The notes under the pieces were generated by a model. That model searched no databases and was not told where the DNA came from. It saw only the letters and a program-made list of their open reading frames with translations. Positions 11,379 to 32,300 of a DNA stretch of 64,000 nucleotides are shown here, in pieces. The stretch covers positions 2,480,001 to 2,544,000 of the forward strand of contig NZ_AP019823.1 of assembly GCF_007990525.1 (NCBI RefSeq). Reading direction: 5' to 3'. Position 1 is the stretch's first letter; each line of letters opens with the position of its first letter. Origin of the DNA: Leptotrichia hofstadii (GTDB lineage: Bacteria; Fusobacteriota; Fusobacteriia; Fusobacteriales; Leptotrichiaceae). A program made the translations under genes and the position numbers.

Positions 11379-11380
11379 GT

Positions 11381-12650: not shown

Positions 12651-12683
12651 AAATTATAAATTTAAAATTATTCTTTTATTATA

Positions 12684-15327: not shown

Positions 15328-15792
15328 CTATTTTTTTATAGTTTCTTCCCAATTTGCAGGATAAATTACATATAAAAATCTTGCAAAGTTAGGAGCACTA
15401 AATTTTATTTTTGAACCTTTAGGAATTAAAATAGCATCTCCTCTATTTCCTGTAACTTTATTTCCATCAACTATGATTTCTAATGTTCCATCTATTACAT
15501 AGTCTATCTCATCATAGTTCAATTCCCAATCAAATGTAGATTCTTCCATTTCCATAACTCCACAGCTTAATCTTCCACTTTCCTCAATTGAAAATACGTC
15601 TGTTAGGAACACTTTGTCATTTGGATTTCCTGTATCAAATTTTTCTGGTTTTACAGTAGGAATTTTAACAACCCCAACTCCACTTTTATCAATATGTTTT
15701 TCAAATCCTCCAACTTTTCTCTTTAATTCTTCTTGTACTACTTTTCTAAGTATTTTTTCTAATGTTTCTCTGTCTAAATTTTTTAAATCCAT
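15328..15792 (-). CDS. eutQ: Ethanolamine utilization protein EutQ, cupin half
   Basis: 154 residues. The C-terminal 100 residues are the EutQ cupin (VFLTDVFSIEESG, WELNYDEIDYVIDGTLEI, GDAILIPKGSKIKFSAP, RFLYVIYPANWEE). In Salmonella EutQ has acetate kinase activity. The protein is shorter than the enterobacterial EutQ of about 230 residues: the N-terminal domain is missing and a similar domain is encoded separately at 25838-26146. The N-terminal helix LDRETLEKILRKVVQEEL looks like a microcompartment encapsulation peptide. The start at 15792 follows GGGAGGAAG. Confidence 0.88.
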   Translation of the reverse strand: MDLKNLDRETLEKILRKVVQEELKRKVGGFEKHIDKSGVGVVKIPTVKPEKFDTGNPNDKVFLTDVFSIEESGRLSCGVMEMEESTFDWELNYDEIDYVIDGTLEIIVDGNKVTGNRGDAILIPKGSKIKFSAPNFARFLYVIYPANWEETIKK

Positions 15793-15816
15793 TGTTCTTC
15801 CTCCCAAATTACTATA

Positions 15817-16962
15817 TTAATTTTCAGGAACGAATAATCCCGTTTGTTCGCTTCTTATTTGAATTAATGCTCTTGGATCTTTTGCTAAGTCATCAAGCTT
15901 TCCTTTTCTTTTCATAAGAAGTAAAATTTTTGTACCTTTATATTCAGAAAGCATGTTAGCATCTCCTATACTGTCACCTGCAACTAAAATAGGATCTTTT
16001 CCACCATGTTTTGATTTTATGTATTTATTTATTACTTCAACTTTTCCTTTAGTTTGTGTTTGTGGATAACCATGTTTGTACTCAGCTCTATATTTATTTC
16101 CATTCATCTCAAGACGCATTCCGTAAACACTGTCAGCACTCAAATTATACCCATAAGATTTATCATTTGCGAAAACTTTTACTATATCTTCAAGAGACGC
16201 TGAAACTATATACACTTTTATACCATTTTTCTCAAATTCATGAAATAAGTTAGCTGTTTCAGGCTGAGTTCTTAATCCACTCTTATATTCATATCTAACT
16301 TTTCCAGCTTCACCTGTCAACTTATCACTTGATTCAAGAACATATTTTCCAAGTTTATTTCCTATTCCAAAGTCATTAGCTTCTTTTGCCAATTTTTGCA
16401 CTTCTTCTACAGTCATATTATCAAACAGGTAAAGAACCCATGGATAAGCAATATCATGAGAAAAACTTCCACCTATTGCTTCATAAAGAAATGCCAATTT
16501 CCCTCTAAAGTCTTTAAATTCTTCTGTAGCTTTTATTTTTTCCAAAGACATTTTTTTATCTTTTATATAATTATTATAAAGGAAAGTATATCTTTTATCT
16601 AAATCATTTGCTATTTTTGTGATATTAATAGCTTGCCCCTTCACATTTGAATATTCCTTGTCAAAATTATCTAATGGAATATCTTTTCTAATTGCCTTTG
16701 AGAAGGCAGCAGGCGTCATTTTAAATCTTAAATTATCTATCTGGTATCTAAACAGATTTTCTTGCGTATCTTGATAAATTGATGTATAATCCCAGTCAAA
16801 AACAACATAGTTTCCTTTATTCTTATTTTCATCTATAAGTTTTGACAAGGCTGCCCTATTTTTGGGAACCCACCTTAATTCATCTAAATTAGCAGCTGAT
16901 AAAACAGATGCCATAACTAAAAATACCAATAATCCAATCAATTTTTTCACATTAAGTTTCAT
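15817..16962 (-). CDS. Exported HAD-family phosphatase in the eut operon
   Basis: 381 residues with a signal peptide (KKLIGLLVFLVMASVLSA, cleavage near residue 23). The HAD motifs are complete: DWDYT at 56-60 (nucleophile D56, acid D58), VSAS near 255, the lysine region, and GDSIGDANM near 338. The layout resembles the periplasmic phosphorylcholine phosphatase PchP of Pseudomonas. Its place between eutH and eutQ suggests release of ethanolamine from phosphoethanolamine outside the cytoplasmic membrane, ready for EutH. Family is certain; substrate is inferred. Confidence 0.8.
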   Translation of the reverse strand: MKLNVKKLIGLLVFLVMASVLSAANLDELRWVPKNRAALSKLIDENKNKGNYVVFDWDYTSIYQDTQENLFRYQIDNLRFKMTPAAFSKAIRKDIPLDNFDKEYSNVKGQAINITKIANDLDKRYTFLYNNYIKDKKMSLEKIKATEEFKDFRGKLAFLYEAIGGSFSHDIAYPWVLYLFDNMTVEEVQKLAKEANDFGIGNKLGKYVLESSDKLTGEAGKVRYEYKSGLRTQPETANLFHEFEKNGIKVYIVSASLEDIVKVFANDKSYGYNLSADSVYGMRLEMNGNKYRAEYKHGYPQTQTKGKVEVINKYIKSKHGGKDPILVAGDSIGDANMLSEYKGTKILLLMKRKGKLDDLAKDPRALIQIRSEQTGLFVPEN

Positions 16963-16997: not shown

Positions 16998-18089
16998 TTA
17001 TTTTGCAGTTTCTTTTTTACAGAATAATATTTTTGCTACAACTATCGCTGTTACTCCTGCCACTAATTTTCCAACTATCATTGGGAATACCATTGTTTTA
17101 TTATATCCAGCAGTAAATCCTAAATGATCTCCAAATACAAATGCAGCACTTACTGCAAAGGCAACATTCATAACTTTTCCATTTGCATCCATATCTTTTA
17201 AAATTCCAAACATTGGAATATTATTAGCCAAAGTTGCAACGAAACCAGCTGCTCCAGCCTCATTCATTCCTAAACTTTTTCCTATAGCAGTCAATGGTTT
17301 TTTAAACACTTGTGTTATAAAATGTACCAGCGGGAATGCTCCTGCAAGAACTATTGCAATTCCACCTACTACTTTAAATCCTTCATCTATCGGATCCATT
17401 CCTCGAATTAGAATTACTTTTTTGTCTGTCAATTTTTCAATAATTGCCGCAATTAAACCTATTGTAATAACTGTCACTACAATTTGTCCAAAAATTGAAA
17501 ATCCTTTTGTCATTTTTTCAGGTATTTTCCATAATCCTATACAAATTAATACTGCAAATATTATAATCGGAACTAAGTTTCTAAGTACCATTCCAATTGG
17601 AAATCCTGCTGCAAGCCCTCCAGCTAGACATCCTAAAGGAATAGTTGTTATCCCTGATAATATCCCTTTTGCAAGAAATGGCTTATCTTCTTTCTCAATA
17701 ATTCCCAAAGCAACAGGAATTGTAAACACAATAGTTGGTCCCATCATTGACCCTAAAATAAACGCTGCAAATAATCCTGATTGAGGATCTTTTGCCATAC
17801 TTAATGCAAGCGGTGCTCCTCCCATATCATTTGCAAGCAATGTTGTTGCAAACATTGAAGGATCTGCTCCTAATGCTGAATATATAGGTCCGACAATAGG
17901 TGTTAACCATTTTCCTAGAACAGGAGCTAATGAAATAATCCCAACCATTGCAACTGCAAGAGAACCCATTGCCATAATTCCTTCTTCAAATTTTTCACCA
18001 TAACCAAATTTATTTCCAATACATTTATCTATTCCACCTATTACCATGAATAAAACCATAATATAGATGATAATTTCATTAATACTCAT
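16998..18089 (-). CDS. eutH: Ethanolamine transporter
   Basis: 363-residue membrane protein with about ten helices, the EutH permease that brings in ethanolamine. Glycine-rich conserved blocks such as LLANDMGGAPLALSMAKDP, FVATLANNIPMFG and AFVFGDHLGFTAGYN are typical. The start at 18089 follows a GGAGG site by five bases; the upstream TTG at 18101 is in front of that site. A 94-base gap with strong RNA structure separates it from eutL, unlike the tight spacing elsewhere in the operon. Confidence 0.93.
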   Translation of the reverse strand: MSINEIIIYIMVLFMVIGGIDKCIGNKFGYGEKFEEGIMAMGSLAVAMVGIISLAPVLGKWLTPIVGPIYSALGADPSMFATTLLANDMGGAPLALSMAKDPQSGLFAAFILGSMMGPTIVFTIPVALGIIEKEDKPFLAKGILSGITTIPLGCLAGGLAAGFPIGMVLRNLVPIIIFAVLICIGLWKIPEKMTKGFSIFGQIVVTVITIGLIAAIIEKLTDKKVILIRGMDPIDEGFKVVGGIAIVLAGAFPLVHFITQVFKKPLTAIGKSLGMNEAGAAGFVATLANNIPMFGILKDMDANGKVMNVAFAVSAAFVFGDHLGFTAGYNKTMVFPMIVGKLVAGVTAIVVAKILFCKKETAK

Positions 18090-18113
18090 TTTGTCCTCCA
18101 AAATCTATTTTTT

Positions 18114-18195: not shown

Positions 18196-18849
18196 TTAAT
18201 AATTTAATGGATTATCTGCCACAGATTTTACTGCTTCAGCGAAAGCATCGCACGCAGCTTTACATGCTGACTGACTTCCTGTTAAAAGTGCTCCACCAAA
18301 GTTTGTTTCTGAAGGTGGTCCAAAGAATGCAACTAAACTTACATCTGCTGCTTTTAATGCAACATCTAAAGCGTACATTGCTTCAAGTGGAGGTGCTATT
18401 AGGTATGCTAATGATTCCCCTTCTGCAATTCCTGCTGTTTTTGATAAATAACTTCCTGTTCTTGATACACAATGTGCATAATATGCAATGCTATCATCAT
18501 CATTTGCACTTATGAATGCTCCTTCATTTTCAATAAAGTCAACTGCTGCAGCTAGTCCACTTTTTACTTCCGCAGGAGTAGGCCCTGACAATATTCCTAT
18601 TACTTCTCCTGCAAGTTTTGTATTCGCATTTGCAGCTCCACCATAGAACGATTTTCCGTAAACTACATCAACTACAGCTTTTTTTGTAGCTTCATCAAGT
18701 GCAGTATATGTAACATCATCACAATCTGCTGTTATAATTCCTATACTTCTATGTCCTTCAGGTAATTCCAGCTCTTTAGCCATATCATTATCTACATTTG
18801 GAATTAATCTTACAGCTAGTACATTTGCTTTTAATCTATCGCCTTTCAT
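18196..18849 (-). CDS. eutL: Microcompartment shell protein EutL
   Basis: 217 residues, two circularly permuted BMC domains in tandem; forms trimers with a gated pore in the ethanolamine microcompartment shell. Family blocks: LAVRLIPNVDNDMAKEL, HRSIGIITADCDDVTYTALDEATKKA (part), VVYGKSFYGGA and FFGPPSETNFGGALLTG. The cysteine in ADCDD is in the EutL position. Lies between eutC and eutH with GGAGGAAC before the ATG. Confidence 0.93.
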   Translation of the reverse strand: MKGDRLKANVLAVRLIPNVDNDMAKELELPEGHRSIGIITADCDDVTYTALDEATKKAVVDVVYGKSFYGGAANANTKLAGEVIGILSGPTPAEVKSGLAAAVDFIENEGAFISANDDDSIAYYAHCVSRTGSYLSKTAGIAEGESLAYLIAPPLEAMYALDVALKAADVSLVAFFGPPSETNFGGALLTGSQSACKAACDAFAEAVKSVADNPLNY

Positions 18850-18893
18850 TGTTCCTCCTAAAGTTTTTAATTTTTATTTTTTATTAAGTTAAT

Positions 18894-19820
18894 TTATAAT
18901 TTTAAATCTTGTCCACTTGCTTTTGCATCAATTACTTTCTTAATTAATGTAGCAACGTGAGCTCCTGCTTCTGAAGATGGAGTTCCATCCTTATGAATAT
19001 TTGAAACAACTGTTCTTTTTGCTTCAGAAATTCCAGGACGAGCCTTGTAAGTAATGTAGGCACTCATACTTTCCGCAGTTGTAAGTCCAGGACGTTCTCC
19101 TATTAATATACAAACTACATCAGCATTTAAAATTTCTCCAACATGATCTCCTGCTCCAACTCTTCCATATTTGATAAAAAATGGTGTTCCTGTATCAATT
19201 CCATATCCTTTAAGTCCATTTAACAATGCAGGTATTATATTTTTTGCATTTGCTTCAACTGCAGTTGAACTTAATCCATCTGACAATAATATTTGAACTG
19301 TTGGATTTTTTTTACATTTTTCTTCTATTGTCTTTATTCCTTCTTCAGAAATTCTTCTTCCTAAATCAGGACGTGTGATATATTGATCTCTGCTTTCACA
19401 TTCAGTAGTAACTTCAAACAATCCAAGTTCATCAAGAAATTCTGTAGGCACGTCATTGAACACGGCATCTTGCGCTGCAGCGTGGTCTGCTCTTAATCTT
19501 AACAAAACTTCTGTTCTCATTCTTGTTCCAGCTCTTCCAATTCCAAGTCTTGCAGATGTTTTTTGTTTTAACTTCATATATTCTTCTCTGTCTTCAGGAT
19601 TATCCACAAGCATTTGATCTTTTATGTTTATTTGTCCAATATCTCTTACTTCTCCGTTTACAATATGAGGATTTTCACGTGGCTCCTCTCCACTTTCAAT
19701 ATAAACTGAGCTTGTACTGACAACTGGCGCTTTTTCTTCCACAGCTGTTACTGGTTCATTTACTTTTATTTCACCTATTATTTTTTCGATTACATCTTTT
19801 AGTTCTCTTTCTGATAACAT
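18894..19820 (-). CDS. eutC: Ethanolamine ammonia-lyase light chain
   Basis: 308 residues. EutC with EutB forms the adenosylcobalamin-dependent lyase that turns ethanolamine into acetaldehyde and ammonia. Recognised blocks: RLGIGRAGTRMRTEVLLRLRADHAAAQDAV (shown in parts), TRPDLGRRIS, GLSSTAVEANA, CILIGERPGLTTAESMSAY and the end NIHKDGTPSSEAGA. The first 30 residues form a helix (SERELKDVIEKIIGEIK) of the kind that targets enzymes into microcompartments, then a variable linker. 13 bases separate it from eutB. Confidence 0.95.
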   Translation of the reverse strand: MLSERELKDVIEKIIGEIKVNEPVTAVEEKAPVVSTSSVYIESGEEPRENPHIVNGEVRDIGQINIKDQMLVDNPEDREEYMKLKQKTSARLGIGRAGTRMRTEVLLRLRADHAAAQDAVFNDVPTEFLDELGLFEVTTECESRDQYITRPDLGRRISEEGIKTIEEKCKKNPTVQILLSDGLSSTAVEANAKNIIPALLNGLKGYGIDTGTPFFIKYGRVGAGDHVGEILNADVVCILIGERPGLTTAESMSAYITYKARPGISEAKRTVVSNIHKDGTPSSEAGAHVATLIKKVIDAKASGQDLKL

Positions 19821-19833
19821 TGATTTTTCCTCC

Positions 19834-21198
19834 CTATTTTAAGAAAATTGAAGCATCTCCGGCTCTATCTGTAAGTTTTCCATCTTTCATTATTCCCATT
19901 TTTTCTAACCATTGTTCAAAAGGTTTTATAGGTCTTCTGTTACATAGTTCTCTTAATGTAGCATCATCATGATAAGAAGATGTTTGATAGTTAAGCATTA
20001 TATCATCTCCTGCAGGAATAGCCATAAAGTAGTTACATCCTGCTACTGTTAATAATACTTTCAAGTTTTCGATATCGTTTTGATCGGCTTTCATGTGGTT
20101 AGTGTAGCAAGCGTCAACTCCCATTGAGATTCCAGTAAGTTTACCCATGAAATGATCTTCAAGTCCAGCTCTTATTACTTGTTTACTGTTATACAAATAT
20201 TCTGGTCCAATAAATCCAACAACCGTATTTACAATAAATGGATCAAATTTTTTCGCAAATCCGTAACATCTTGCTTCCATTGTAACCTGATCGCAACCAT
20301 GGTGAGCATCTGATGACAATTCTGAACCTTGTCCTGTTTCAAAGTACATTACGTTAGGTCCTGTCGCTGTTCCGTGTTTTAATGCCAAATCTCTTGCTTC
20401 CTGAATCATTGTTCCATTTATTCCAAATGCTTCATTTCCTTTTTCAGATCCTGCAATACTTTGGAAAACTAAGTCTGTAGGTGCTCCTCTTCTAATTGCT
20501 TCCATTTGTGTAGTTACGTGAGCCAATACACATATTTGTGTAGGAATTTCCCATTTAGTTTTTATTTCATGGAATCTGTGCAACACTCTCATAACACTGT
20601 CAACACTGTCATCAACTGGGTTTAATCCTAGCAATGCATCTCCTTGCCCAAAGCTAAGCCCTTCATAAGTTGAAAGCATAATTCCATCTGGATCATCTGT
20701 TGTATGGTTAGGCTGTAATCTTGTAGCAAGTATTCCTTCTCCACCTATTTCAGTATTACAGAATTTTTTAATTCTTATTTTGCTTGCTCCTTGAATAAGG
20801 TCCATATTACTCATAAGTTTAGCAACTGCTGCCACCATTTCACTTGTAAGACCTTTACTGATTCTCTTTATGTCGTCACCACTTGTATGAGAATCTAAAA
20901 TCCATTCTCTTAATTCACTTACAGTCCAGTTTTTTATTTCTCCATAAATTTTTTCATTTACAGCATCCTGTATGATTCTTGTAACTTCATCTTCTTCATA
21001 AGGTACTGCAGGATTGTTTCTTAAATCTGCCAATGTCAATTCAGCCAATACAGCTTTAGCAGCCACTCTTTCTTCTGCTGTGCTTGCACTTACTCCTGCA
21101 AGTTCGTCTCCTGATCTAAATTCACTCGCTTTGTTCTGCACGTCTTTTACAGATTTAAATTCATAAGTATGTCCGAATAATTTAGTTTTTAATACCAT
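19834..21198 (-). CDS. eutB: Ethanolamine ammonia-lyase heavy chain
   Basis: 454 residues, full length. Catalytic TIM-barrel subunit. Clear blocks include KLMSNMDLIQGASKI, FCNTEIGGEGILATRLQPNHT, LLGLNPVDDSV, VLAHVTTQMEAIRRGAPTDL, FETGQGSELSSDAHHG and MGVDACYTNHMKADQND. The substrate-binding and B12-binding positions known for the family fall in these conserved stretches. Overlaps nothing; GAGAGGTGG precedes the start, with a small ATG-TAA in the spacer that is probably meaningless. Located in the microcompartment lumen. Confidence 0.96.
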   Translation of the reverse strand: MVLKTKLFGHTYEFKSVKDVQNKASEFRSGDELAGVSASTAEERVAAKAVLAELTLADLRNNPAVPYEEDEVTRIIQDAVNEKIYGEIKNWTVSELREWILDSHTSGDDIKRISKGLTSEMVAAVAKLMSNMDLIQGASKIRIKKFCNTEIGGEGILATRLQPNHTTDDPDGIMLSTYEGLSFGQGDALLGLNPVDDSVDSVMRVLHRFHEIKTKWEIPTQICVLAHVTTQMEAIRRGAPTDLVFQSIAGSEKGNEAFGINGTMIQEARDLALKHGTATGPNVMYFETGQGSELSSDAHHGCDQVTMEARCYGFAKKFDPFIVNTVVGFIGPEYLYNSKQVIRAGLEDHFMGKLTGISMGVDACYTNHMKADQNDIENLKVLLTVAGCNYFMAIPAGDDIMLNYQTSSYHDDATLRELCNRRPIKPFEQWLEKMGIMKDGKLTDRAGDASIFLK

Positions 21199-21228
21199 TG
21201 TTACATGCCACCTCTCTAAATTTTTTAT

Positions 21229-22659
21229 TTAATAACTGAATACCAATGTTTTTATTACAACAGGTAATACATTTCCATTTCCTAGCGGCGCTCCTATGTC
21301 AATATAATCTCCATCTCTTACTTTTACACTGTCTATGCAAATTATATCATAACCATCAAGCGCAAGTTTCATACATTGTCCCAATACTTTTGCCATATCA
21401 TTTTCAACTATAACGATTACAGGATGAGTCTTGTCATGTTTCCTTTTTATAACATCTGAAATCACTGAAGATAGCTCCATTATGTCAGTATATGCCATAT
21501 TGTGTTTACCTTTAAAGGCAAGTGCCACATTTTCAATTTCACTTTCAGAGTTAAACCAGTTTAGTTTACTTTCAATAATATTTCCTAGTTCATTAATTGG
21601 CAGCTGCTCGTCTGCCTCAGACATTTTCAGTACAGGAATATTTTTTATTGGAAAAATTCCTTCAGTATAAGTTATTGTACTTCCACTTATCTCTGTCGTA
21701 TGGCTTCCTGCACCAACTACTGTCGCTCCAATTGTTTCACTTAATTTCAGAGGCTCTATATTTAACTCTTTCAGGACTTTTACCAGTTCCTCTCCAAGTA
21801 CTACCCCTATATCATTATATTTGTACAAGTCCTTTTCAGTTTTTCCATAAACGAAATCTGCAACTCCTCCAGTAAATGAATAATGCTCAATGCTGCCATT
21901 ACGTTTTCTGAAATCTTTATATGTTACTATTTTATGGTACAAATCTGTTTTTGGCAAAAGTTCAATACTTTCAAGAATAAGCTGTGCCATTCTTCTCGTT
22001 ATTTTTCTCAAATCCTGTTCGCTTATTTTTCTGCCCAATTCCAATTTTACATTTACATCAGCAGCAATATCGTACATTTTTTTGAAAATATAACGTGTAT
22101 TTCCATTTTCATCAAATTTTACAAGTCGTCCTCCAATGTCAAGACAGGTTGTATCTTCCACTTCTCCTCTGTTGAAAACTACAATGTTTGTAGTTCCTCC
22201 CCCTATATCAAAGTTTACGATACTTGTATTTTTCTCATCAGAATATCCGTAAGCTCCCGAACCTTTTCCAGCAATAATACTTTCCAAATCAGGTCCTGCT
22301 GTCGCAACAACGAAATCTCCTGCCATTCCACTAAGAATTTGCAGTACTTCCTTGGCATTTTCCTTTCTTGCCGTATCTCCTGTTATTATTACAGCCCCTG
22401 TCGAAACATCTTTGTATTGAATATTGGCTTTTTTGTATTCAGATTCTATTATTTCCTTAACCTTTTTTGCATCTATTTTTGTTTCAGTTTCCAGCGGAGT
22501 AATATAAATGTCACTTCTATATATAACTTCTTTTCCTATTATTTTAAGCTGAGGCGCTGTAAATGCAGTTCCTCTGTTTTCTATATAAATTTTTGAGAAA
22601 ATAAGCTGAGTAGTAGAAGTTCCAATGTCTATTCCTACACTTAATATTTCTTCTATCAT
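21229..22659 (-). CDS. eutA: Ethanolamine ammonia-lyase reactivating factor
   Basis: About 476 residues, actin/Hsp70-like ATPase that swaps damaged cobalamin out of EutBC. The two phosphate loops are seen as [16 protein letters not shown] near the N-terminus and [15 protein letters not shown]. The adenosine region [19 protein letters not shown] lies toward the C-terminus. The start at 22659 follows an AAAGGAG site; an ATG eight codons upstream precedes it. It is placed upstream of eutB as in other Firmicute-type eut loci. Confidence 0.92.
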
Positions 22660-22705
22660 TATACAAGACTCCTTTGTCTTCATTAATATTTAATATAAAG
22701 ATAAA

Positions 22706-24109
22706 TCAATTTTCAAACCCAAAACTGATTTCAGTTCCCTTATTACCAGTCTTTATATCCAGATTCCCATAAAGTTTTTCCTTTACAAGACTTTTCACAA
22801 TCTGCAATCCGATACTCCCTTTTTCAAAGTCCTTTTCGTCCATTCCAATCCCATCATCACTTATGAAAATACGGGATTTCATCTCTCCACTTTTTACTCT
22901 AATTGTTATATGTCCTCTGCTACGCCCCTTAAAAGCGTGCTTTATACAATTTTCCACAAGTTCATTTACTATAAGTGCAATTGTTGTTGCCTTGTCCGAA
23001 TTGATTTCAAAATTATCTCCGATTACATCTATTTTTAGTTTTAAATGCCCTTCCAAATTTTCTCTTACCGAATTTTTCAGAATTTTATTTATAACTTCCT
23101 TTATTTCCAATTCATCTAGTCCATTCTGAGCAAGTAATTCGTGAGTAACTGATATACTTAATATTCTGTTTATACTGTCACTAAATGCCGTTTTTACAGC
23201 TTTATCATCTGTTTTTCTTGCCTGTATCCGAAGCAAACTTGCAATGGTTTGTAAATTATTTTTTACTCTGTGATGAATTTCTTTAATTGCAACTGATTTT
23301 AAAATCAGCTCCTTTTCCTTGATTTTAATTTCTGTAATATCTTTTATAAATAAAACGACATTTTTAACATCTTTCGTTTCCTTTACCAGTATATATTCCA
23401 AACTCAAAACCATATTTGATATGTTTACATCTGATTTTTCACTTACTTTTCCACTTAGCACATCCTCAAATTCAACATCATCAATTACTATATTATCAAA
23501 TTTTTCTCCAAGGAAAAAATCCTTATAGCCAATCTTCCTGTATACATATTTAGCTCTGGAATTAGCATATATGCACAGACCCTCTTCATTAAAAATTATA
23601 ATTCCATCATTGATGTAGTCGATTATTTTACGTTCCCGCAACATTCCAACAGAGCTCATAAGGATATCATCAGTCGCATTATTAAGAAAACTCAGTTCCT
23701 TGTTAATATTTTCCTCATTCATGCCCTCTTCGACTATAAGAACAGCTATTATTTCTCCAGATTCCTCATCACTTCTTATAGGCACTACATTCTGCGTTAC
23801 ACTTTTATTTTCCTGTGTCAATGCCTTATAATCTCGTGATGGATGTCCAGTTTCGAGAGTTCTTAATACCGCAGGCTCATTTTTTCTATAGGCAAATTTC
23901 CCTACAACGCTCTGAGTGTAACTCGAACCCCGTCTTGGATTTGCCTCGGCAACTACAATCGCTGTATCTCTATTTTCCGTCATACAATCAATAAATACGT
24001 CTGCTTTTAATAACTTGCTCATAACTGGAAGCCCTTCACATATTTTCTCCAGCTTTTCAATATCTTTGTTTGAAAGCTCCGTATATTGTTTACATATCGT
24101 TCTAAGCAT
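22706..24109 (-). CDS. eutW: Ethanolamine-sensing histidine kinase EutW
   Basis: 467 residues, no membrane helix. N-terminal sensor domain (about 1-150), a PAS-like middle (DYINDGIIIFNEEGLCIYANSRAK), then an HisKA_2-type phosphoacceptor EIHHRVKNNLQTIASLLRIQ and an HATPase domain (NELVENCIKHAF, DDGIGM, GSIGLQIVKSL). In Enterococcus EutW senses ethanolamine and phosphorylates EutV. It overlaps the eutV end; of two nearby ATG codons, 24109 has the better spacing from the TGGAG site. Confidence 0.9.
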   Translation of the reverse strand: MLRTICKQYTELSNKDIEKLEKICEGLPVMSKLLKADVFIDCMTENRDTAIVVAEANPRRGSSYTQSVVGKFAYRKNEPAVLRTLETGHPSRDYKALTQENKSVTQNVVPIRSDEESGEIIAVLIVEEGMNEENINKELSFLNNATDDILMSSVGMLRERKIIDYINDGIIIFNEEGLCIYANSRAKYVYRKIGYKDFFLGEKFDNIVIDDVEFEDVLSGKVSEKSDVNISNMVLSLEYILVKETKDVKNVVLFIKDITEIKIKEKELILKSVAIKEIHHRVKNNLQTIASLLRIQARKTDDKAVKTAFSDSINRILSISVTHELLAQNGLDELEIKEVINKILKNSVRENLEGHLKLKIDVIGDNFEINSDKATTIALIVNELVENCIKHAFKGRSRGHITIRVKSGEMKSRIFISDDGIGMDEKDFEKGSIGLQIVKSLVKEKLYGNLDIKTGNKGTEISFGFEN

Positions 24110-24680
24110 CTTCATCTCCAGATAAAATTATAATATCGGCTATTTTTCCCATATCGCACCTTTTGTTCATACTAAGTGTTCTTATGTACTCGTATGCTTC
24201 ATTCTCAGTAAAATTCCTTGTTTTCATCAAAATACTTTTGGCTATATCAATTTTTTTTCTATCCTCCAGCTTTTGACTTGTTTTCAAATATTTTTTCTCC
24301 AGTTTTTCAAATTCTTCCTGTTTGTTAAATATAATCTCCAGGTTAGGAATAAAGGATTTTTCGTCGATGGGTTTCACTATATATCCTATTATTCCTATAT
24401 TTTTTGCTTCCTCTATAAATTCTTTGTTGGAATATGCTGTAAGTAAAACAATACCTCTAGACAATTTTTGCTCCGTTATTACTTTTGCTGCCTTCAATCC
24501 ATCCAGTATTGGCATTTTGACATCCATTATTACAAAATCAGGATTATATTTTTTGCTCTGCTCTATAGCATCAAATCCGTCACCTGCCTCAGCAACTACA
24601 TCATAATTGGCTTCTCTAAGTATTTCACAAATATCCATCCTTGTTATCGGCTCATCATCTACAACTATTATTTTTCTCAT
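24102..24680 (-). CDS. eutV: Response regulator with ANTAR RNA-binding domain
   Basis: 192 residues: receiver domain (acidic pair D8 D9, phosphoacceptor D53 in VIMDVKMP, conserved TAYSN and YIVKPI) then a coiled linker and a C-terminal ANTAR domain (EDRKKIDIAKSILMKT, ENEAYEYIRTLSM, IADIIIL). Phosphorylated EutV binds dual-hairpin RNA and prevents termination in eut leaders. A matching hairpin overlaps a terminator at 32682-32733 here. Partner kinase eutW overlaps its 3' end. Confidence 0.92.
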   Translation of the reverse strand: MRKIIVVDDEPITRMDICEILREANYDVVAEAGDGFDAIEQSKKYNPDFVIMDVKMPILDGLKAAKVITEQKLSRGIVLLTAYSNKEFIEEAKNIGIIGYIVKPIDEKSFIPNLEIIFNKQEEFEKLEKKYLKTSQKLEDRKKIDIAKSILMKTRNFTENEAYEYIRTLSMNKRCDMGKIADIIILSGDEDA

Positions 24681-24701
24681 TTTTTTTCCTTTTCCTCGAA
24701 T

Positions 24702-25820
24702 TTAATATAAATCTTTCAATAACTGCTTCATTTCAATTCTGTTAAATCGTCTAGGATTTTCCCCTGTACACAGATCATTTTCTATCTGATCAATGATACT
24801 TTCCATTTCAGAAAAATATTGTTCCTCCGGGATTCCTAGTTCTCTTAAATTATTTGGTATTCCCATTTTAGCCGCTCTCATTTTGATGGCTTTTGCTAGC
24901 ATTTCCACACCTTCTGCATCTTCTTTAGGTGTAAATCCCAACGCTTCAGCAATTTCACGGTAATATCTTGCCGCATTCTTATTTTGTGCATTAAACTTTA
25001 TAACTTTTGGCATTATTACTGCATTAAGCCGTCCATGCGGCTTATGAAATCTTGCCCCTAGCGAATGTGCTATGCTGTGGTTTATTCCTAATCCTGCATT
25101 GCTGAATGCTACTCCTGCCATGCACGAAGCAATCTGTAAATCAATTCTTTCCCTTTCCAGCCCAGGATTTTCAAAATTGCTTACCAAATCAGCAAAAACA
25201 GTTTTTATTGCTCCTAGCGCAAGTGTATTTGTAAACAGATTTCTAGATCTTGAAACATATGCTTCTATGGCGTGTGTCAAAACATCCATTCCAGTGTCTG
25301 CAATTATTGATGGTGGAAGAGTTTTTATAAATTCTGGATTTAAGATTGCTATATCTGGCAGCATTTCACTGTCACTTAGTGGTATTTTTTTATCTTTTGT
25401 TGTAACAACTGCATAAGATGTTACTTCTGACCCTGTTCCGCTCGTTGTAGGGATTGCAATAAATTTTGGCTTTTTATTTTGTCCAATTGCCTTTTTTATC
25501 TGATTTGTAAAATAAATCATTGATTTGCAGGCATCTATTGGGGAACCTCCTCCAAGTGCTATTATGCAGTCAGGATTATATGCGCTTAATTCCAGCATTC
25601 CGTTTATAATTTCCTCATCAGTGGGATCAGGCTTTACATCCGAATATATTTTAGTTTCTATTTCCCGTGATTTTAAAATATTAACAACTTTATTTGTAAC
25701 TTTTAGTTTTACCATATTTTCATCTGTAACTAAAAATACTTTTTCCATTTCCAGCGTTCTTAATATATCCAAAGAATTAGCACCATAATGAATATCCGGT
25801 TTTATTTGAAATAACCCCAT
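24702..25820 (-). CDS. eutG: Iron-containing alcohol dehydrogenase EutG
   Basis: 372 residues, group III iron-dependent alcohol dehydrogenase that reduces acetaldehyde to ethanol and recycles NAD within the microcompartment. GGGSPIDACKSMIYF (nucleotide-binding), TTSGTGSEVTSYAV, the metal ligands in DTGMDVLTHAIEAYVS and GINHSIAHSLGARFHKPHG are intact. Start at the ATG at 25820 after AAAGGAAG; the GTG three codons upstream lies in the spacer. Between the EutQ-N-like gene and eutV. Confidence 0.92.
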   Translation of the reverse strand: MGLFQIKPDIHYGANSLDILRTLEMEKVFLVTDENMVKLKVTNKVVNILKSREIETKIYSDVKPDPTDEEIINGMLELSAYNPDCIIALGGGSPIDACKSMIYFTNQIKKAIGQNKKPKFIAIPTTSGTGSEVTSYAVVTTKDKKIPLSDSEMLPDIAILNPEFIKTLPPSIIADTGMDVLTHAIEAYVSRSRNLFTNTLALGAIKTVFADLVSNFENPGLERERIDLQIASCMAGVAFSNAGLGINHSIAHSLGARFHKPHGRLNAVIMPKVIKFNAQNKNAARYYREIAEALGFTPKEDAEGVEMLAKAIKMRAAKMGIPNNLRELGIPEEQYFSEMESIIDQIENDLCTGENPRRFNRIEMKQLLKDLY

Positions 25821-25837
25821 TGAATCCACTTCCTTTC

Positions 25838-26146
25838 TTATCGTAATTCTTTTAATTTGGATAATATTTTTTGGACTGTTTCAAAATCTGTTATTTTATA
25901 ATCTTTTACAAGTATTTCAATAACTTTTCTTTCTAAATCCCCACAGTCTTTTTTTATTTCATTTTTTACTTTGTTTTCTGATTCACAGTTTGATTCACAG
26001 AAAGATTTTTCATATCTTACTTCGACTCCCTGTTCCCTAATTATGTCCTTTGCCCCGGGAGTAATAATCATATCAGCCTGAACCACTAATTCCTTGTTTT
26101 GAACAAATTCAGAAAGATTTTTTACCGTAATCAATCTTTTTTTCAT
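25838..26146 (-). CDS. Stand-alone protein resembling the EutQ N-terminal domain
   Basis: 102 residues. The first 45 (MKKRLITVKNLSEF, VQADMIITPGAKDIIREQGVE) resemble the N-terminus of enterobacterial EutQ (MKKLIT..., then a stretch ending IITPEAREVAELLG) and, less closely, the start of EutT here (ITEKDILTPSAREFLN). A cysteine-containing linker (SFCESNCES) and a C-terminal helical part like EutQ's middle region follow. The eutQ gene at the operon end lacks this domain. Function unknown; the split-EutQ reading is an inference from remembered sequence. Confidence 0.55.
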   Translation of the reverse strand: MKKRLITVKNLSEFVQNKELVVQADMIITPGAKDIIREQGVEVRYEKSFCESNCESENKVKNEIKKDCGDLERKVIEILVKDYKITDFETVQKILSKLKELR

Positions 26147-26150
26147 TTTT

Positions 26151-26420
26151 TTACTCCTTTTCCGACTCCAAACTGTCTATTATTCCTACAATAGTTGCAT
26201 CCACAGGGGTTTCAGCGTCAAATATATGTCTTGCAGAACTTCCTGTAACAATTATTACCTTGTCACCTTGTCCAGATCCAATGTAATCTGCCGCTACCAT
26301 TTTTCTGCTTCCATGCCCTTCGCCAGTTCCTTCTACTTCAACTACCATAAGTTTTAATCCTTTTAGTTTTTCATCCTTCCTTGTTGCCCAGACATTATCC
26401 ACAACTTTTCCAATTAACAT
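26151..26420 (-). CDS. eutN: Microcompartment vertex protein EutN
   Basis: 89 residues of the EutN/CcmL family, which makes pentamers that cap shell vertices. Recognisable: MLIGKVVDNVWATRKDEKL, VAADYIGSGQGDKVIIVTGSSAR and the end VDATIVGIIDS. The start at 26420 follows AGAGGACA; the upstream in-frame ATG codons lie inside the end of the preceding gene. Confidence 0.95.
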   Translation of the reverse strand: MLIGKVVDNVWATRKDEKLKGLKLMVVEVEGTGEGHGSRKMVAADYIGSGQGDKVIIVTGSSARHIFDAETPVDATIVGIIDSLESEKE

Positions 26421-26421
26421 A

Positions 26422-27066
26422 CTATTGTCCTCTTTCATAGTATAATTCAATACTATTTTCTTTTATATAATCCATTGCAAGGGAAGTTACTTTAGATTTT
26501 GCATCAACTTCAAGCATCTGATTTTTTAATCCTAGCTTTCTAAGTCTGCTTTCTGTTATCAATCCCTTCAAATAAACCTTTTCTTTTGCACAAAAAATAT
26601 TTTTAACTTCTGTTCTTTTCACAACCTTTATTCCAAATTCCTTTACTTTCTCAAGATATTCGTCGTAAAGATTAATTAACACAGCAGGCTTAGTATATTT
26701 TTTATATTCCAGCCCTTCTTCTACAAGAATAACTTGTGAATCATTAAAAAGAAACTCCGTCATAATACTTTTTCTACCTTGTGAAAGATCTATTAAATCA
26801 TTTATTCCAAGAGTTGATACTACAAGCACTTTTTTATTTTCATTTTGTCTAACGTCTTCCCATGTGCTGTCCAGCTTTACATTATCCATAAATGATATTT
26901 CATTTTTAAGTTCATCCTTCAAAACCTCATCATTTCCCAAAAAAACTGTTATTACAGATTTTTTAGAAATTACCTCATTATTTTCAGATAATTTTTCATT
27001 TTCCCTTTTTTCAATTTCCTTTAACACTTCCCTTGCAAGCACTTCTATCAAATTTTGAGTATCCAT
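26422..27066 (-). CDS. Uncharacterised eut-operon protein
   Basis: 214 residues, soluble. An N-terminal amphipathic helix (QNLIEVLAREVLKEIEKRE) looks like a microcompartment encapsulation peptide, then a Ser/Asn-rich linker, then an alpha/beta body (SVITVFLGNDEVL, KVLVVSTLGINDLIDLSQG, FLFNDSQVILVEEGLEYKKY, AVLINLYDEY). Similar proteins of unknown role occur in Firmicute and fusobacterial eut operons, as far as I recall. The body is reminiscent of flavoprotein-like folds, but no cofactor motif is visible. Lies between pduL-type eutD and eutN. Confidence 0.65.
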   Translation of the reverse strand: MDTQNLIEVLAREVLKEIEKRENEKLSENNEVISKKSVITVFLGNDEVLKDELKNEISFMDNVKLDSTWEDVRQNENKKVLVVSTLGINDLIDLSQGRKSIMTEFLFNDSQVILVEEGLEYKKYTKPAVLINLYDEYLEKVKEFGIKVVKRTEVKNIFCAKEKVYLKGLITESRLRKLGLKNQMLEVDAKSKVTSLAMDYIKENSIELYYERGQ

Positions 27067-27093
27067 TTTATCTCCTCATCATATTTTTTAGAG

Positions 27094-27729
27094 CTACTTT
27101 TCAATACTTCCAGTCACTCCTGAAATATACCCGCAGGAATTGGCTTCATCAAAGTCTATATGCATGCTCAGTCTAAAGCTGTCCCTTACTCTTATCAAAA
27201 CATCATCAAATATTAACGGTCTGTCGCTGTGAATTTTTACTTTTACAGTTTCACCGTCTTTTACAGAAAATCTTTCTGCGTCTTCTCTTGTCATATGAAT
27301 ATGTCTTTTGGCAACAATAACACCTTTATCCAGATGCACATATTTATCTCCTACACCCAGTAATATTCCCGGTGTTCCTTCAATTTTTCCACTTTCTCTT
27401 ATTACTCCCTTGACTCCTATTTCACGGCAGTCAGTAAGTGATAATTCCACTTGAGAAAAATTTCTGCATGGTCCTAATATTGCAACATTGGAAAATTCGC
27501 CTTTTGGTCCGATTACCCTAACTCTTTCCTTCGCCGCAAATTGTCCTGGCTGTGATAAATCCTTTACAGGAGTCAATTCATAACCTTCTCCGAAAAGTGC
27601 TTCTACGTGTTCCTTTGTAAGATGCACATGTCGTCCCGAAGCCTCAACCATAAAGGTATCATCTTTTTCTGCACCCATTATTTCCTGTAATTTTTCTCTT
27701 ATTATTCTCTCCAATTCATTTCTATCCAT
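27094..27729 (-). CDS. PduL-type phosphotransacylase (EutD role)
   Basis: 211 residues. Converts acetyl-CoA to acetyl phosphate in the microcompartment. PduL motifs with zinc-binding histidines are clear: VEASGRHVHLTKEHVEALFG (first barrel) and VIVAKRHIHMTREDAERF (second barrel). The N-terminal helix NELERIIREKLQEIMG is an encapsulation peptide. Replaces the unrelated Pta-like EutD of enterobacteria, as usual in Firmicute-type loci. Start at 27729 after GGGAGA. Confidence 0.92.
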   Translation of the reverse strand: MDRNELERIIREKLQEIMGAEKDDTFMVEASGRHVHLTKEHVEALFGEGYELTPVKDLSQPGQFAAKERVRVIGPKGEFSNVAILGPCRNFSQVELSLTDCREIGVKGVIRESGKIEGTPGILLGVGDKYVHLDKGVIVAKRHIHMTREDAERFSVKDGETVKVKIHSDRPLIFDDVLIRVRDSFRLSMHIDFDEANSCGYISGVTGSIEK

Positions 27730-27749
27730 AATATCTCCCAATTCGGAGC

Positions 27750-28535
27750 TTATGATTTATAATCTCCGTTATTCGCTTTTAACATCATCAAGTACAATAT
27801 ACTGCTCAGACGGTTTAGTGCCTTTAGCATGTCTACTCTTTCCGTCTTCCCTTCCTTATAAAAAGCATCTACTGCAGCAACTTCACACTCTCTTGACAAA
27901 GCTCTAAGACAGTTTATATCAATGACTGTTTCATCAAAGTCAGCATTTATTTCAAAGAGATGTCCTGTTTTGTAATATTTAATTGTATTATGAGTTATAT
28001 CTTTTAATGTATCAATGTCATATCCAAGAACATCTCTTTCCTGAAACGGTGTATCGGTCATCTCACTTATAAACAAGTCTCTTACAAATCTGTATGCCTG
28101 TGCAAAGTCACTTTCTAATTTTTTATTCTTTTCATATTTTTTCCAGTATCTTATTACCTCAGCCTGCAAGATATCAAACTTACCTCGCAAAACAATTCTC
28201 TTATGATTTTTTACAACAAGTTCATTTCCAAACAGTTGAGTCATAAATTCAGGCTTTTTATCATAAGTTGCTCCTGTAATATAGTCTTTATACTGTCTTT
28301 TTGGAGAGGCTTTTTCTTCGGAAGTATTTGCTTGAGAGTCTTTAACTCTGTTTGCATTGGCTGATTCATTATTTACAACTTGCTCCTGTGATTTTTTTAT
28401 TCTAAAATCAATTTTTTTTACATTTAAAAACTCTCTTGCTGACGGTGTAAGGATGTCTTTTTCAGTTATTCGTACTTTTTCAAGCTGCCCTTCCTTATCT
28501 AATTTTCTAAGCATTCCTTCTGTTATAACAGGCAT
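27750..28535 (-). CDS. eutT: Ethanolamine-locus cobalamin adenosyltransferase EutT
   Basis: 261 residues. Makes adenosylcobalamin, the cofactor of EutBC. N-terminal domain (MPVITEGMLRKL, ITEKDILTPSAREFLNVKKI) is the small domain shared with EutQ. The C-terminal helical domain is the EutT/PduO-like core (RFVRDLFISEMTDTPF, YDIDTLKDITHNTIKYYKTGH and the end ALNRLSSILYLMMLKANNG). The cysteine-rich metal motif of the Salmonella enzyme (HX11CCX2C) is not present; the linker at residues 50-85 has no cysteine. Confidence 0.88.
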   Translation of the reverse strand: MPVITEGMLRKLDKEGQLEKVRITEKDILTPSAREFLNVKKIDFRIKKSQEQVVNNESANANRVKDSQANTSEEKASPKRQYKDYITGATYDKKPEFMTQLFGNELVVKNHKRIVLRGKFDILQAEVIRYWKKYEKNKKLESDFAQAYRFVRDLFISEMTDTPFQERDVLGYDIDTLKDITHNTIKYYKTGHLFEINADFDETVIDINCLRALSRECEVAAVDAFYKEGKTERVDMLKALNRLSSILYLMMLKANNGDYKS

Positions 28536-28548
28536 TTTTTATCACACC

Positions 28549-30018
28549 CTATCTATTTTTTATAATTCCGTCCAATACTTTTCTTATGATATCTTCAATT
28601 TCATTTTCGTTCACTCGTGAATTATCAACTGAACATGTATTTACACATGAACCTTCTTCTTTCAATTCTTCCAGTTCCTTTGTACCGTAAGCTACTCTTC
28701 TAATGTTTATAAGATTTAATGGTCCAATATTGTCAGAAGTTGCACTTCCTCCAACAGTTCCACATCCTAATGTAAATGCAGGTAAAAGATTAGTTGTTGC
28801 TCCTACTCCTCCAAGTGCCGCAGCTGTATTTACAAGCAGTCTTGACACAGGTTTTTTCAATGAAAATTCTCTTACGATATTTTCGTTATTTGTGTGCATT
28901 GACATTGTATGTCCGATTCCTTCATTTTCAAGAATTTCTATACATTTTTCACATGCTTTTTCCCAAGTTTCTTCTGTATAAAATCCTAATACAGGACATA
29001 ATTTTTCTCTTGAATATGGATTTAAATGAGAAACTTCTGTTTCTTCAGAAACAAGTATTTTTGTAGTTGTAGGAACTGTTATCCCTGCCATTGCAGCTAT
29101 ATATAAAGCTGTTTTTCCAACTATTTTTGGATTCATTGTGTTGTTTGCACGCATAAGGATGCTTCCAACTTTATTTCTTTCATCTTTGTTAAGGAAGTAT
29201 GCTCCTTGTCTTTTTAGTTCATCTACTACTTGATTTTTAATTACTTCTTCTGTAACTATTGATTGTTCTGAAGCACAAATTACTCCATTATCAAAAGTTT
29301 TACTGTCGATAATTCTTTTAACAGCTTTTCTTATATCAGCACTTCTTTCAATAAACGCAGGTCCATTTCCAGGTCCTACTCCTATTGCAGGTGTTCCTGA
29401 ACTATAGGCAGCTTTTACCATCGCTTCTCCACCTGTTGCAAGAATTAATGAAGTCTTTTTATGTTTCATAAGTTCTTGTGTAGCTTGTAATGTAGGTGTT
29501 TTTATAACTCCAATAAGTCCTTTTGGAGCACCTTTTCTTTCAGCAGCTTTTATCAAGTATTCTGCAGTCTTAATTATACAGTCCTTTGCATTTGGGTGAG
29601 GACTTACAATTACTGCGTTTCCTGCCTTTAATGCTATCATTATTTTATAAATTGTTGACGAAGTAGGATTAGTTGATGGAATCAAGGCTGCAATTATACC
29701 CATTGGAACTCCTATTTCAGTTATTCTTTTTTCCTTGTCATCAAGAATTATCCCTTTTGTCTTCTGATCTTTTATAGCTTCATATACTCCTACTGAAGCA
29801 AGTCTATTTTTTAGAACTTTATCTTCCCAACGTCCAAATCCTGTTTCTTCATTAGCAAGTTTTGCTAGCTCAACTTCATGTTTTTGAGCTTCTTCACAGA
29901 TTTCCCTTACTATTTCATCAATTTGACCTTGCGAGAACTGACTATATTCTTCAAATGCTTTACTTGCGCTATTTAATAAATCTCTTACTTCTTGTATTGA
30001 TTGTAAATCTTTATCCAT
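28549..30018 (-). CDS. eutE: CoA-acylating acetaldehyde dehydrogenase
   Basis: 489 residues. Oxidises acetaldehyde to acetyl-CoA with NAD. Family marks: MGIIAALIPSTNPTSSTIYK, GVGPGNGPAFIERSADI, the catalytic cysteine in DNGVICASEQS and LGCGTVGGSATSDNIGP. The C-terminus ends in a helix after a linker (NENEIEDIIRKVLDGIIKN), an unusual position for an encapsulation peptide compared with the N-terminal ones elsewhere in this operon. Lies between the third eutM and eutT. Confidence 0.94.
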   Translation of the reverse strand: MDKDLQSIQEVRDLLNSASKAFEEYSQFSQGQIDEIVREICEEAQKHEVELAKLANEETGFGRWEDKVLKNRLASVGVYEAIKDQKTKGIILDDKEKRITEIGVPMGIIAALIPSTNPTSSTIYKIMIALKAGNAVIVSPHPNAKDCIIKTAEYLIKAAERKGAPKGLIGVIKTPTLQATQELMKHKKTSLILATGGEAMVKAAYSSGTPAIGVGPGNGPAFIERSADIRKAVKRIIDSKTFDNGVICASEQSIVTEEVIKNQVVDELKRQGAYFLNKDERNKVGSILMRANNTMNPKIVGKTALYIAAMAGITVPTTTKILVSEETEVSHLNPYSREKLCPVLGFYTEETWEKACEKCIEILENEGIGHTMSMHTNNENIVREFSLKKPVSRLLVNTAAALGGVGATTNLLPAFTLGCGTVGGSATSDNIGPLNLINIRRVAYGTKELEELKEEGSCVNTCSVDNSRVNENEIEDIIRKVLDGIIKNR

Positions 30019-30069
30019 AGTTTGTCCTTTCTATAAATAATCACTGTTATCTGATTACTTTAAGTTCTC

Positions 30070-30366
30070 TTATTCACCCTCAACTACTCTTGATTTAGGC
30101 AATATAGCTTCAATTTCAGTATGAGGACGAGGAATTACGTGAATTGAAATCAATTCTCCTACTCTTTCAGCAGCCGCAGCTCCTGCATCTGTTGCAGCCT
30201 TAACTGCTCCTACATCTCCTCTTACTAATACTGTTACTAGTCCTCCACCTACGTGTTCTTTTCCGATTAGAGTAACATTTGCAGCTTTTACCATTGCGTC
30301 TGCAGCTTCTACTGCCGCTACCAATCCTTTAGTTTCAATCATTCCTAATGCATTTAATGTTGCCAT
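30070..30366 (-). CDS. eutM: Microcompartment hexameric shell protein (EutM/PduA type), copy 3
   Basis: 98 residues, single BMC domain ([56 protein letters not shown]). Identical to the other two copies (31967-32242, 32301-32585) over the first 80 residues except V for I at position 19. It differs only in the last residues, with the longest tail (SRVVEGE). Ribosome-binding site AGGAGG. Forms hexagonal tiles of the shell. Confidence 0.95.
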
Positions 30367-30368
30367 TT

Positions 30369-31136
30369 TTATTCCTCCTGATTATTTTTTATCAAAATCT
30401 CTATTAATTTTTTCTTTGGCATTGTCTTTATCTGGTTCCATGTGTACCCAAGTTTAAGACTGTTTACTTTTGTCTTTAAATCTGCCACCTTCATGTCCTG
30501 ATAATGTTTTTTTGCCTTTTTTATTTCTTCTTTTGTTTCTTCATCTTTTTTTTTTAAAGTTTCTGTTACTGAAACTTCTTCGTTTTCCTGAATAATACCG
30601 TTCTGTTTTTCTGCTTCTTCATTTTCTGTTATTTCCTGAATTACTTCTTCCGCTTTTTCTTCCGTTTCAATTTTTTCTGTAAAATCTTCAGATTGTTCTT
30701 CAGTCACTTGATTTTTATTTTCAATATCTGAACTTTCATCCACTGCCTGCTCAACCACTTCTTCCGGAACTGTTTCGACTTCGATTTTTTCATTTTCATT
30801 GTCTAATTCTTCAATAATTTTTTGATTATCTTGCACAGTGTCAGTTTTTTCATCAGATTTTTTTCCAATATCACTTATCAGAATTTTCTTTGTTTCAGAA
30901 GCCACTCTTGCAATAACGTTACTGCTCAGGAAATTTCCAAGCCTTTTGGCACTTTCACTTGCGGCATCCACAGCGGCATTTACAGCAGCTACATCTCCCA
31001 TAACCTCAATGGTTACAATTCCACCTTTTACATAATAGCAGTTTGTAAGTGTTACATTTGCTGCCTTCAAGGCGGCATCTGCAGCTTCTATTGCCGTTAC
31101 AAGCCCCCGCGTTTCCACATATCCGTATGAATCCAT
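30369..31136 (-). CDS. BMC shell protein with long acidic linker and basic C-terminal domain (EutK-like)
   Basis: 255 residues. Residues 1-90 are a BMC domain ([53 protein letters not shown]). Residues about 95-205 are a Glu-rich, low-complexity linker. The last 50 residues ([41 protein letters not shown]) are a basic helical unit that looks like a SAP/Rho-N type nucleic-acid or protein-binding domain. E. coli EutK also has a BMC plus a C-terminal helix-turn-helix, but the linker here is far longer. Confidence 0.8.
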
Positions 31137-31155
31137 CTATCTATCACCTTCTTGT

Positions 31156-31587: not shown

Positions 31588-31589
31588 TT

Positions 31590-31940: not shown

Positions 31941-31966
31941 TTAACAAATCCTTTCTAAAACTTATT

Positions 31967-32242: not shown

Positions 32243-32300
32243 AGCTATTACCTCCTAAATTTTTTTATAAATAGTTTTATTTTTTATAAAATTATTTATA

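What the first reader, a model, noticed from the sequence alone, without database searches (positions are those of the whole stretch)
15817..16962. Exported HAD phosphatase embedded in the eut operon
A complete HAD hydrolase with a clear signal peptide lies between eutH and eutQ. Its motif layout recalls the periplasmic phosphorylcholine phosphatase PchP. It could release ethanolamine from phosphoethanolamine outside the inner membrane for uptake by EutH, extending the pathway to host membrane breakdown products. I know of no such enzyme as a standard eut component.
Basis: partly seen in the sequence, partly recalled or inferred. Interest (0 to 1): 0.58.

Follow-up and report, generated by a model that had tools for sequence, protein, structure and literature searches.

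The report
Exported phosphatase feeding the ethanolamine pathway
Bacteria that eat ethanolamine, a piece of cell membranes, often carry next to those genes an exported phosphatase that probably clips phosphate off phosphoethanolamine outside the cell, so their real food may be a larger membrane fragment than has been assumed.

Summary
In detail: window 15817-16962 (minus) is an intact 381-aa exported HAD phosphatase between eutH and eutQ in a complete microcompartment eut cluster of a Leptotrichia-like genome. AlphaFold2 (pLDDT 93), Foldseek and VIA-align put it nearest the orphan structure 4GXT, then the phosphorylcholine/phosphoethanolamine phosphatase PchP, with all catalytic residues kept. 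A survey of 80 homologous loci finds eut or eat genes within 10 kb in 37 (control gene 1 of 80; true PchP 0 of 9), in four phyla, in many gene orders, with and without microcompartments; at least 10 changes of linkage on the tree. Homologues carry Sec, lipoprotein or Tat export signals (76 of 79 by rule). Best reading: it releases ethanolamine from phosphoethanolamine outside the inner membrane for EutH or Eat. Activity is inferred, not shown. A 2019 paper noted this gene in fusobacterial eut clusters and called it a phosphate acetyltransferase; that is contradicted by export, by PduL in the same cluster, by Pta in every such genome, and by compartment-free eut operons that carry it. F. vincentii and one other genome hold a non-exported copy with three pocket residues changed, whose role is open.

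The parts
15817..16962 (-). exported HAD phosphatase, 381 aa (subject of the finding)
16894..16962 (-). Sec signal peptide, residues 1-23, predicted cleavage LSA|AN
   Evidence: sequence; rule-based test; cleavage site by eye
16783..16797 (-). HAD motif I, D56-W-D58-Y-T60 (PchP D31, D33, T35)
16759..16761 (-). E68, equivalent to PchP E43 (ammonium-binding residue in the PchP literature); identical in 94 of 94 exported homologues aligned
   Evidence: PMC3170909 abstract
16444..16446 (-). Y173, equivalent to PchP Y95; identical in 94 of 94 exported homologues aligned
16201..16203 (-). HAD motif II, S254 (PchP S166)
16042..16044 (-). HAD motif III lysine, K307 (PchP K242)
15961..15978 (-). HAD motif IV, G329-D-S-I-G-D334 (PchP D262, D267)
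16998..18101 (-). eutH, ethanolamine permease
15328..15807 (-). eutQ
18196..22683 (-). eutL, eutC, eutB, eutA
22706..25829 (-). eutW histidine kinase, eutV ANTAR response regulator, iron alcohol dehydrogenase
27094..27741 (-). PduL-type phosphate acyltransferase (PF06130, 262 bits): the PTA step is already present in this cluster
25838..32585 (-). rest of the eut cluster: EutN, cobalamin adenosyltransferase-like, aldehyde dehydrogenase (EutE), EutP and five BMC shell genes, with two unassigned ORFs

Best explanation
It is an exported HAD phosphatase that hydrolyses phosphoethanolamine (and perhaps related amino-alcohol phosphates) between the inner and outer membrane, giving phosphate and free ethanolamine, which EutH imports for EutBC. 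It thus moves the start of the ethanolamine pathway one step upstream, to the product that phospholipase C releases from phosphatidylethanolamine. Chemistry (inferred from PchP): D56 attacks the phosphorus, D58 is acid/base, D330 and D334 hold Mg2+, K307 and S254 hold the phosphate, and E68 with Y173 and Y160 hold the ammonium end. Shown here: intact gene, export signal, catalytic residues, PchP-like fold, recurrent linkage to ethanolamine genes in four phyla. Inferred: the substrate, the flow into EutH, and the source of phosphoethanolamine.
For: Fold: model pLDDT 93; best matches 4GXT (Z 46.1, 1.8 A over 355) and PchP 4AS2 (Z 28.7, 3.1 A over 281), next Z 21.2, phosphoserine phosphatases at most 15.3. 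PchP is reported to hydrolyse phosphoethanolamine (passages of PMC3170909). Linkage: any eut/eat marker within 10 kb in 37 of 80 loci, EutB/EutC in 25, strong Eat in 20, control gene NAPRT in 1, canonical PchP 0 of 9; permeases next to it in 4 of 4 loci scanned pass the ethanolamine-permease cut-off; at least 10 changes of linked/unlinked state on a 101-row tree. In Fusobacteriota the gene sits in the eut cluster in all 13 genomes with close orthologues (12 fetched plus the window) at shifting positions. Within the window's genus it is in 6 of 7 EutB-bearing genomes and 0 of 6 others. Export: 76 of 79 rows by rule, Sec, lipobox and Tat types; 0 of 41 cytosolic controls (4 of 41 if upstream starts are allowed). 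E68, Y160, Y173 identical in 94 of 94 exported rows. The window's genome lacks glycerophosphodiesterase PF03009. Exported GlpQ-type enzymes: 0 of 13 EutB genomes with the close orthologue, 11 of 18 EutB genomes without any hit (Fisher p 0.0004, not corrected for kinship).
Against: No activity has been measured. 43 of 80 loci are not next to eut/eat markers. Four EutB genomes carry both a homologue and an exported glycerophosphodiesterase (G023, G024, G026, G082), which weakens the either-or pattern to 4 of 17 against 11 of 18 (p 0.04); that comparison was thought of after seeing the first genome. No Zn-dependent phospholipase C (PF00882) in the window's genome, so phosphoethanolamine would have to come from outside; other phospholipase families were not searched. 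F. vincentii and one copy in G049 have no signal peptide and have lost E68, Y160 and Y173, so the family is not uniform in place or pocket.
Confidence: 0.72

Rival explanations
1. It is a third, non-orthologous form of phosphate acetyltransferase for the eut pathway (Ravcheev et al. 2019).
For: Predicted in PMC6620236 from its place in Eut clusters of 12 Fusobacteria genomes that lack other PTA genes (passage read). F. vincentii and G049 clusters indeed show no PduL hit in the stretch fetched, and the F. vincentii copy and one of the two G049 copies are not exported.
Against: The window's protein carries a signal peptide; the window cluster has PduL; Pta PF01515 is in 95 of 98 Fusobacteriota genomes, including all 13 with close orthologues, and in F. 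vincentii; homologues sit in Eat-EutBC loci in which I found no shell gene; HAD motifs and the PchP fold point to phosphomonoester hydrolysis.
Confidence: 0.02
2. It is a broad acid phosphatase for phosphate scavenging, and its place in eut clusters reflects co-regulation rather than ethanolamine supply.
For: More than half of the surveyed loci are unlinked; PchP also takes p-nitrophenylphosphate.
Against: Linkage recurs with different gene orders in four phyla and with two different ethanolamine permeases, EutH and Eat; E68, Y160 and Y173 are invariant in the exported family.
Confidence: 0.13
3. The main substrate is another amino-alcohol phosphate, above all phosphocholine, with ethanolamine as a side product.
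For: PchP is its nearest characterised relative; one unlinked homologue (L054) lies beside a betaine/choline-type BCCT transporter.
Against: Of the surveyed loci, 37 of 80 have ethanolamine markers and 1 of 80 a BetT-like hit; four Pseudomonas, one Methylobacterium and four Burkholderia genomes carry a separate canonical PchP at 61-77% identity in addition.
Confidence: 0.1
4. It serves the cobalamin supply of EutBC, for example as an alpha-ribazole phosphate phosphatase.
For: In Streptococcus loci it lies upstream of eutP and of a block that looks like cobalamin genes (clusters 44-47; names recalled from the look of the sequences, no family search run).
Against: It is exported while that step is cytosolic (textbook knowledge); most linked loci do not share that block, which was found in five Streptococcus loci only.
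Confidence: 0.03

Closest known systems
PchP, phosphorylcholine phosphatase of Pseudomonas aeruginosa (PDB 4AS2)
   Same: HAD fold and catalytic residues D31, D33, T35, S166, K242, D262, D267; E43, Y95, W97; exported; phosphoethanolamine is a reported substrate.
   Different: 27% identity over the aligned 281 residues; this family has extra cap segments (F100, D120, K155, Y160 have no PchP partner) and is a separate clade with a very long branch between; PchP loci show no eut markers in 9 of 9, and in P. aeruginosa pchP lies beside betT.
PDB 4GXT, conserved protein of unknown function from Anaerococcus prevotii
   Same: Whole-length match, Z 46.1, 34% identity; keeps the catalytic residues and the equivalent of E68 (alignment, read by eye). 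It is the solved structure of this family.
   Different: No function assigned; its gene neighbourhood was not examined.
HAD of the Fusobacterium nucleatum eut locus (PMC6620236, PMC11796344)
   Same: Homologue, 51% identical in F. vincentii, in a eut cluster between eutQ and an iron alcohol dehydrogenase.
   Different: No signal peptide; E68, Y160 and Y173 changed to L, H and C.
PHOSPHO1 and plant PECP1 phosphoethanolamine phosphatases
   Same: Enzymes acting on phosphoethanolamine (PECP1 abstract; PHOSPHO1 title in a reference list); HAD type recalled, not compared here.
   Different: Eukaryotic; no sequence comparison was run.

Membership tests
HAD phosphatase superfamily (PF12710) | motifs I-IV with two Asp, Ser/Thr, Lys, two Asp, and a Rossmann-like core | tested here: met
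PchP (EC 3.1.3.75) family | common fold and conserved catalytic plus ammonium-site residues | tested here: met
   E42 of PchP is Q67 in the window protein, E43 is E68; the Y82-84 stretch of PchP was not matched
PchP (EC 3.1.3.75) family | falls in the same clade as canonical PchP | tested here: not met
   PchP (one sequence) is joined only by a branch of length 4.28; nine genomes hold both kinds. Only one PchP row was in the tree.
PchP (EC 3.1.3.75) family | activity on phosphocholine and phosphoethanolamine | not testable with these tools
   needs an assay
Exported phosphatases | N-terminal export signal | tested here: met
   rule-based only; SignalP not available
Phosphate acetyltransferase (Ravcheev proposal) | belongs to PF01515 or PF06130, or acts in cytosol or microcompartment | tested here: not met
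   no such Pfam hit; signal peptide; real PduL and Pta present
eut cluster component | conserved in eut loci across lineages | tested here: met
   13 of 13 close-orthologue genomes in Fusobacteriota; 37 of 80 loci overall

The most novel reading that the evidence does not exclude
For many ethanolamine users the true extracellular nutrient is phosphoethanolamine, and this exported phosphatase is an overlooked upstream enzyme of the pathway that has joined compartment-type and compartment-free eut operons many times; in part of Fusobacterium it was then moved into the cytosol and its pocket was rebuilt for a new job.
Probability: 0.4. Interest if true: 0.75.

Novelty: new variant of a known kind. 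Interest (0 to 1): 0.6.

Why it matters
How bacteria get free ethanolamine from membranes is usually passed over with a mention of phosphodiesterases (PMC5821096, passage). If this enzyme does what its place suggests, it supplies a missing step, gives a role to an orphan crystal structure (4GXT), corrects a published function assignment, and predicts that bacteria from mouth, gut and soil can live on phosphoethanolamine. The F. nucleatum paper itself recalls that placental phosphorylethanolamine falls while ethanolamine rises late in pregnancy.

Tried and rejected
Phage records: no homologue. Plasmid records: 9, among them Methylobacterium nodulans eutB-eutC-eat-HAD. Coordinates of the model are not available in the Python box, so no pocket distances were measured. 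Rfam found no RNA element in the eut cluster itself at the gathering threshold. Promoter-like hits exceed shuffles by about two standard deviations and terminator-like hits do not exceed them, so operon limits rest on spacing. Neighbours of the unlinked loci showed no one recurrent theme among ten proteins scanned. Genome-wide EutB in the genomes of unlinked loci (37 of 43) is weak support, as Pseudomonas and Burkholderia mostly have EutB anyway; one of the 44 loci sent (L081) was not held, and L130, first taken as unlinked, was reclassed as linked. Literature: nine searches found no paper proposing a phosphoethanolamine phosphatase in eut loci; Tsoy 2009 was not held; supplements could not be read.

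Rows dropped: L092, L003 and L004 were left out of the tree, and L092 therefore also out of the export count (hence 79 of 80); the four distant Fusobacteriota rows L012, L014, L016, L025, and the PchP row and the two non-exported copies, were left out of the 94 rows of the residue count. Of the 24 Fusobacteriota genomes with a hit, neighbourhoods were read for 21 (window plus 20 fetched); G029, G031 and G032 were not fetched.

Full report
What is there. Window 15817-16962 on the minus strand is an intact 381-codon gene lying 35 nt after eutH and 9 nt before eutQ, in a cluster that runs from eutQ (15328) to a shell gene (ends 32585) and holds eutH, L, C, B, A, W, V, an iron alcohol dehydrogenase, EutN, PduL, an adenosyltransferase-like gene, an aldehyde dehydrogenase, EutP and shell genes. 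The genome is of the same genus as G006, whose main contig has the length of the Leptotrichia hongkongensis record NZ_AP019846.1 (2,261,073 bases), so I call it Leptotrichia-like. The gene is single copy.

The protein. Residues 1-23 form a classical signal peptide; the rest is an HAD enzyme with D56, D58, T60, S254, K307, D330 and D334. By sequence the nearest solved chains are 4GXT (E 6e-51, function unknown) and PchP 4AS2 (E 6e-15). An AlphaFold2 model from 34 sequences has mean pLDDT 93. VIA-align gives 4GXT Z 46.1 (1.8 A, 355 residues) and PchP Z 28.7 (3.1 A, 281 residues); the next is Z 21.2 and phosphoserine phosphatases reach at most 15.3. Profile comparison with PchP gives 99.6% probability. 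PchP is reported to act on phosphocholine and phosphoethanolamine in the periplasm, with E42, E43 and Y82-84 named for the ammonium sites (abstract, passages and two sections of PMC3170909). The equivalent of E43, E68, is the same in 94 of 94 exported homologues aligned, as are Y160 and Y173 (Y95 of PchP).

Neighbourhoods inside the phylum. In 98 Fusobacteriota genomes 24 have a hit at E 1e-10 or better; 13 have an orthologue at 69% identity or more. In all 13 it lies in the eut cluster: the window and 12 fetched stretches. Its place shifts: eutH-HAD-eutQ, after the alcohol dehydrogenase, between a shell gene and the aldehyde dehydrogenase; in the more distant G082 between the aldehyde dehydrogenase and the adenosyltransferase-like gene. 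So it is kept in the cluster although the order is not. Three homologues of 45-46% in genus g9 (G023, G024, G026) and the weaker ones examined (G079, G030, G019, G001) are not near eut. EutB is in 35 of 98 genomes: 17 of 18 genomes with a hit at E 3e-49 or better have EutB, 18 of 80 others do (Fisher p 1e-8, kinship not corrected). In the window's genus the gene is in 6 of 7 EutB genomes and 0 of 6 without.

Neighbourhoods elsewhere. With tblastn markers, 37 of 80 loci have eut or eat genes within 10 kb, 25 have EutB or EutC, 20 have a strong Eat hit; the neighbouring but unrelated marker NAPRT is in 1 of 80, and nine canonical PchP loci with about 10 kb on each side have none. Some loci are cut short by contig ends; of the 61 held at 20 kb or more, 27 are linked. 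The linked loci are in Fusobacteriota, Bacillota (Ammoniphilus, Brevibacillus, Paenibacillus, Streptococcus, Sporomusaceae), Pseudomonadota (Herbaspirillum, Methylobacterium, Cupriavidus, Variovorax, Thauera, Propionivibrio, Acinetobacter and others) and one Bacteroidota bin. Four permeases scanned pass the ethanolamine-permease model and three EutP-like neighbours pass theirs. Orders seen include eat-HAD-eutB-eutC, eat-eutB-eutC-HAD, eutB-eutC-eat-HAD and HAD-eat. On a 101-row tree the linked and unlinked states need at least 10 changes (quick tree, long branches warned).

Export. By a simple rule 76 of 79 loci carry a Sec, Sec plus lipobox, Tat, or Tat plus lipobox signal, and the three misses look like Tat signals by eye; 36 of 36 linked rows pass; 0 of 41 cytosolic control ORFs pass at their first start, 4 of 41 if upstream starts are allowed. 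That three export routes serve one family argues that being outside matters.

The published alternative. Ravcheev et al. 2019 (outline and passages read) saw an HAD gene in the Eut clusters of 12 Fusobacteria genomes, 28% identical to PchP, and predicted a third form of phosphate acetyltransferase. Here the window cluster has PduL, Pta is in 95 of 98 genomes including all 13 and in F. vincentii, the protein is exported, and relatives occur in Eat-EutBC loci with no shell gene found. I reject that assignment for the exported family. Franklin et al. 2024 (passages and one section read) list the F. nucleatum HAD without a role.

The odd copies. F. vincentii and the second of two tandem copies in G049 start right after a ribosome site with no signal peptide, and have L/K, H and C in place of E68, Y160 and Y173 while keeping the catalytic residues. 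Ravcheev's genomes may mostly hold this form (inference). Its substrate is open, so my case against the acetyltransferase reading rests there on chemistry and on Pta elsewhere, not on export.

A hint on supply. The window's genome has no glycerophosphodiesterase PF03009 and no PF00882 phospholipase C. Among EutB genomes of the phylum, exported GlpQ-type enzymes (signal peptide checked) are in 0 of 13 with the close orthologue and 11 of 18 with no hit (p 0.0004), but all four EutB genomes with more distant homologues have one, which brings it to 4 of 17 against 11 of 18 (p 0.04). This was a test devised after the first result, and kinship is not corrected.

Verdict. Confirmed observation; the phosphoethanolamine reading is the best supported at 0.72, with activity, specificity and flux untested. 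It is a distinct branch of PchP-like HAD phosphatases in a new pathway role.

Noticed in passing
12484-12664 (-): Cobalamin riboswitch (RF00174, 86.8 bits) between cbiK (12684-13430) and an oligopeptide-type ABC transporter (8941-12322), which suggests a B12-controlled transporter near the B12-dependent eut cluster.
   Followed up: no
25838-26146 and 26422-27066 (-): Two ORFs of the eut cluster without any Pfam hit, yet with tblastn matches in other fusobacterial eut clusters.
   Followed up: no
L019:1498-2637 and L019:2649-3761 (G049): Tandem pair of the phosphatase in one eut cluster: one exported at 77%, one without signal peptide at 51% and with altered pocket residues.
   Followed up: partly
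L004 (G005): The orthologue in a close relative has an in-frame TAG at codon 254 of 381: a decaying gene or a sequence error.
   Followed up: no
L081 10001 and 11752: Clostridium simiarum has two tandem copies of the phosphatase.
   Followed up: no
L130 8713-9729: Acinetobacter ihumii has an APH/choline-kinase-like gene just upstream of the phosphatase and a divergent ethanolamine permease beyond it.
   Followed up: no
L173 (G082 contig C12 26323-27270): An exported glycerophosphodiesterase lies a few kb beyond a eut cluster that also holds a phosphatase homologue.
   Followed up: partly
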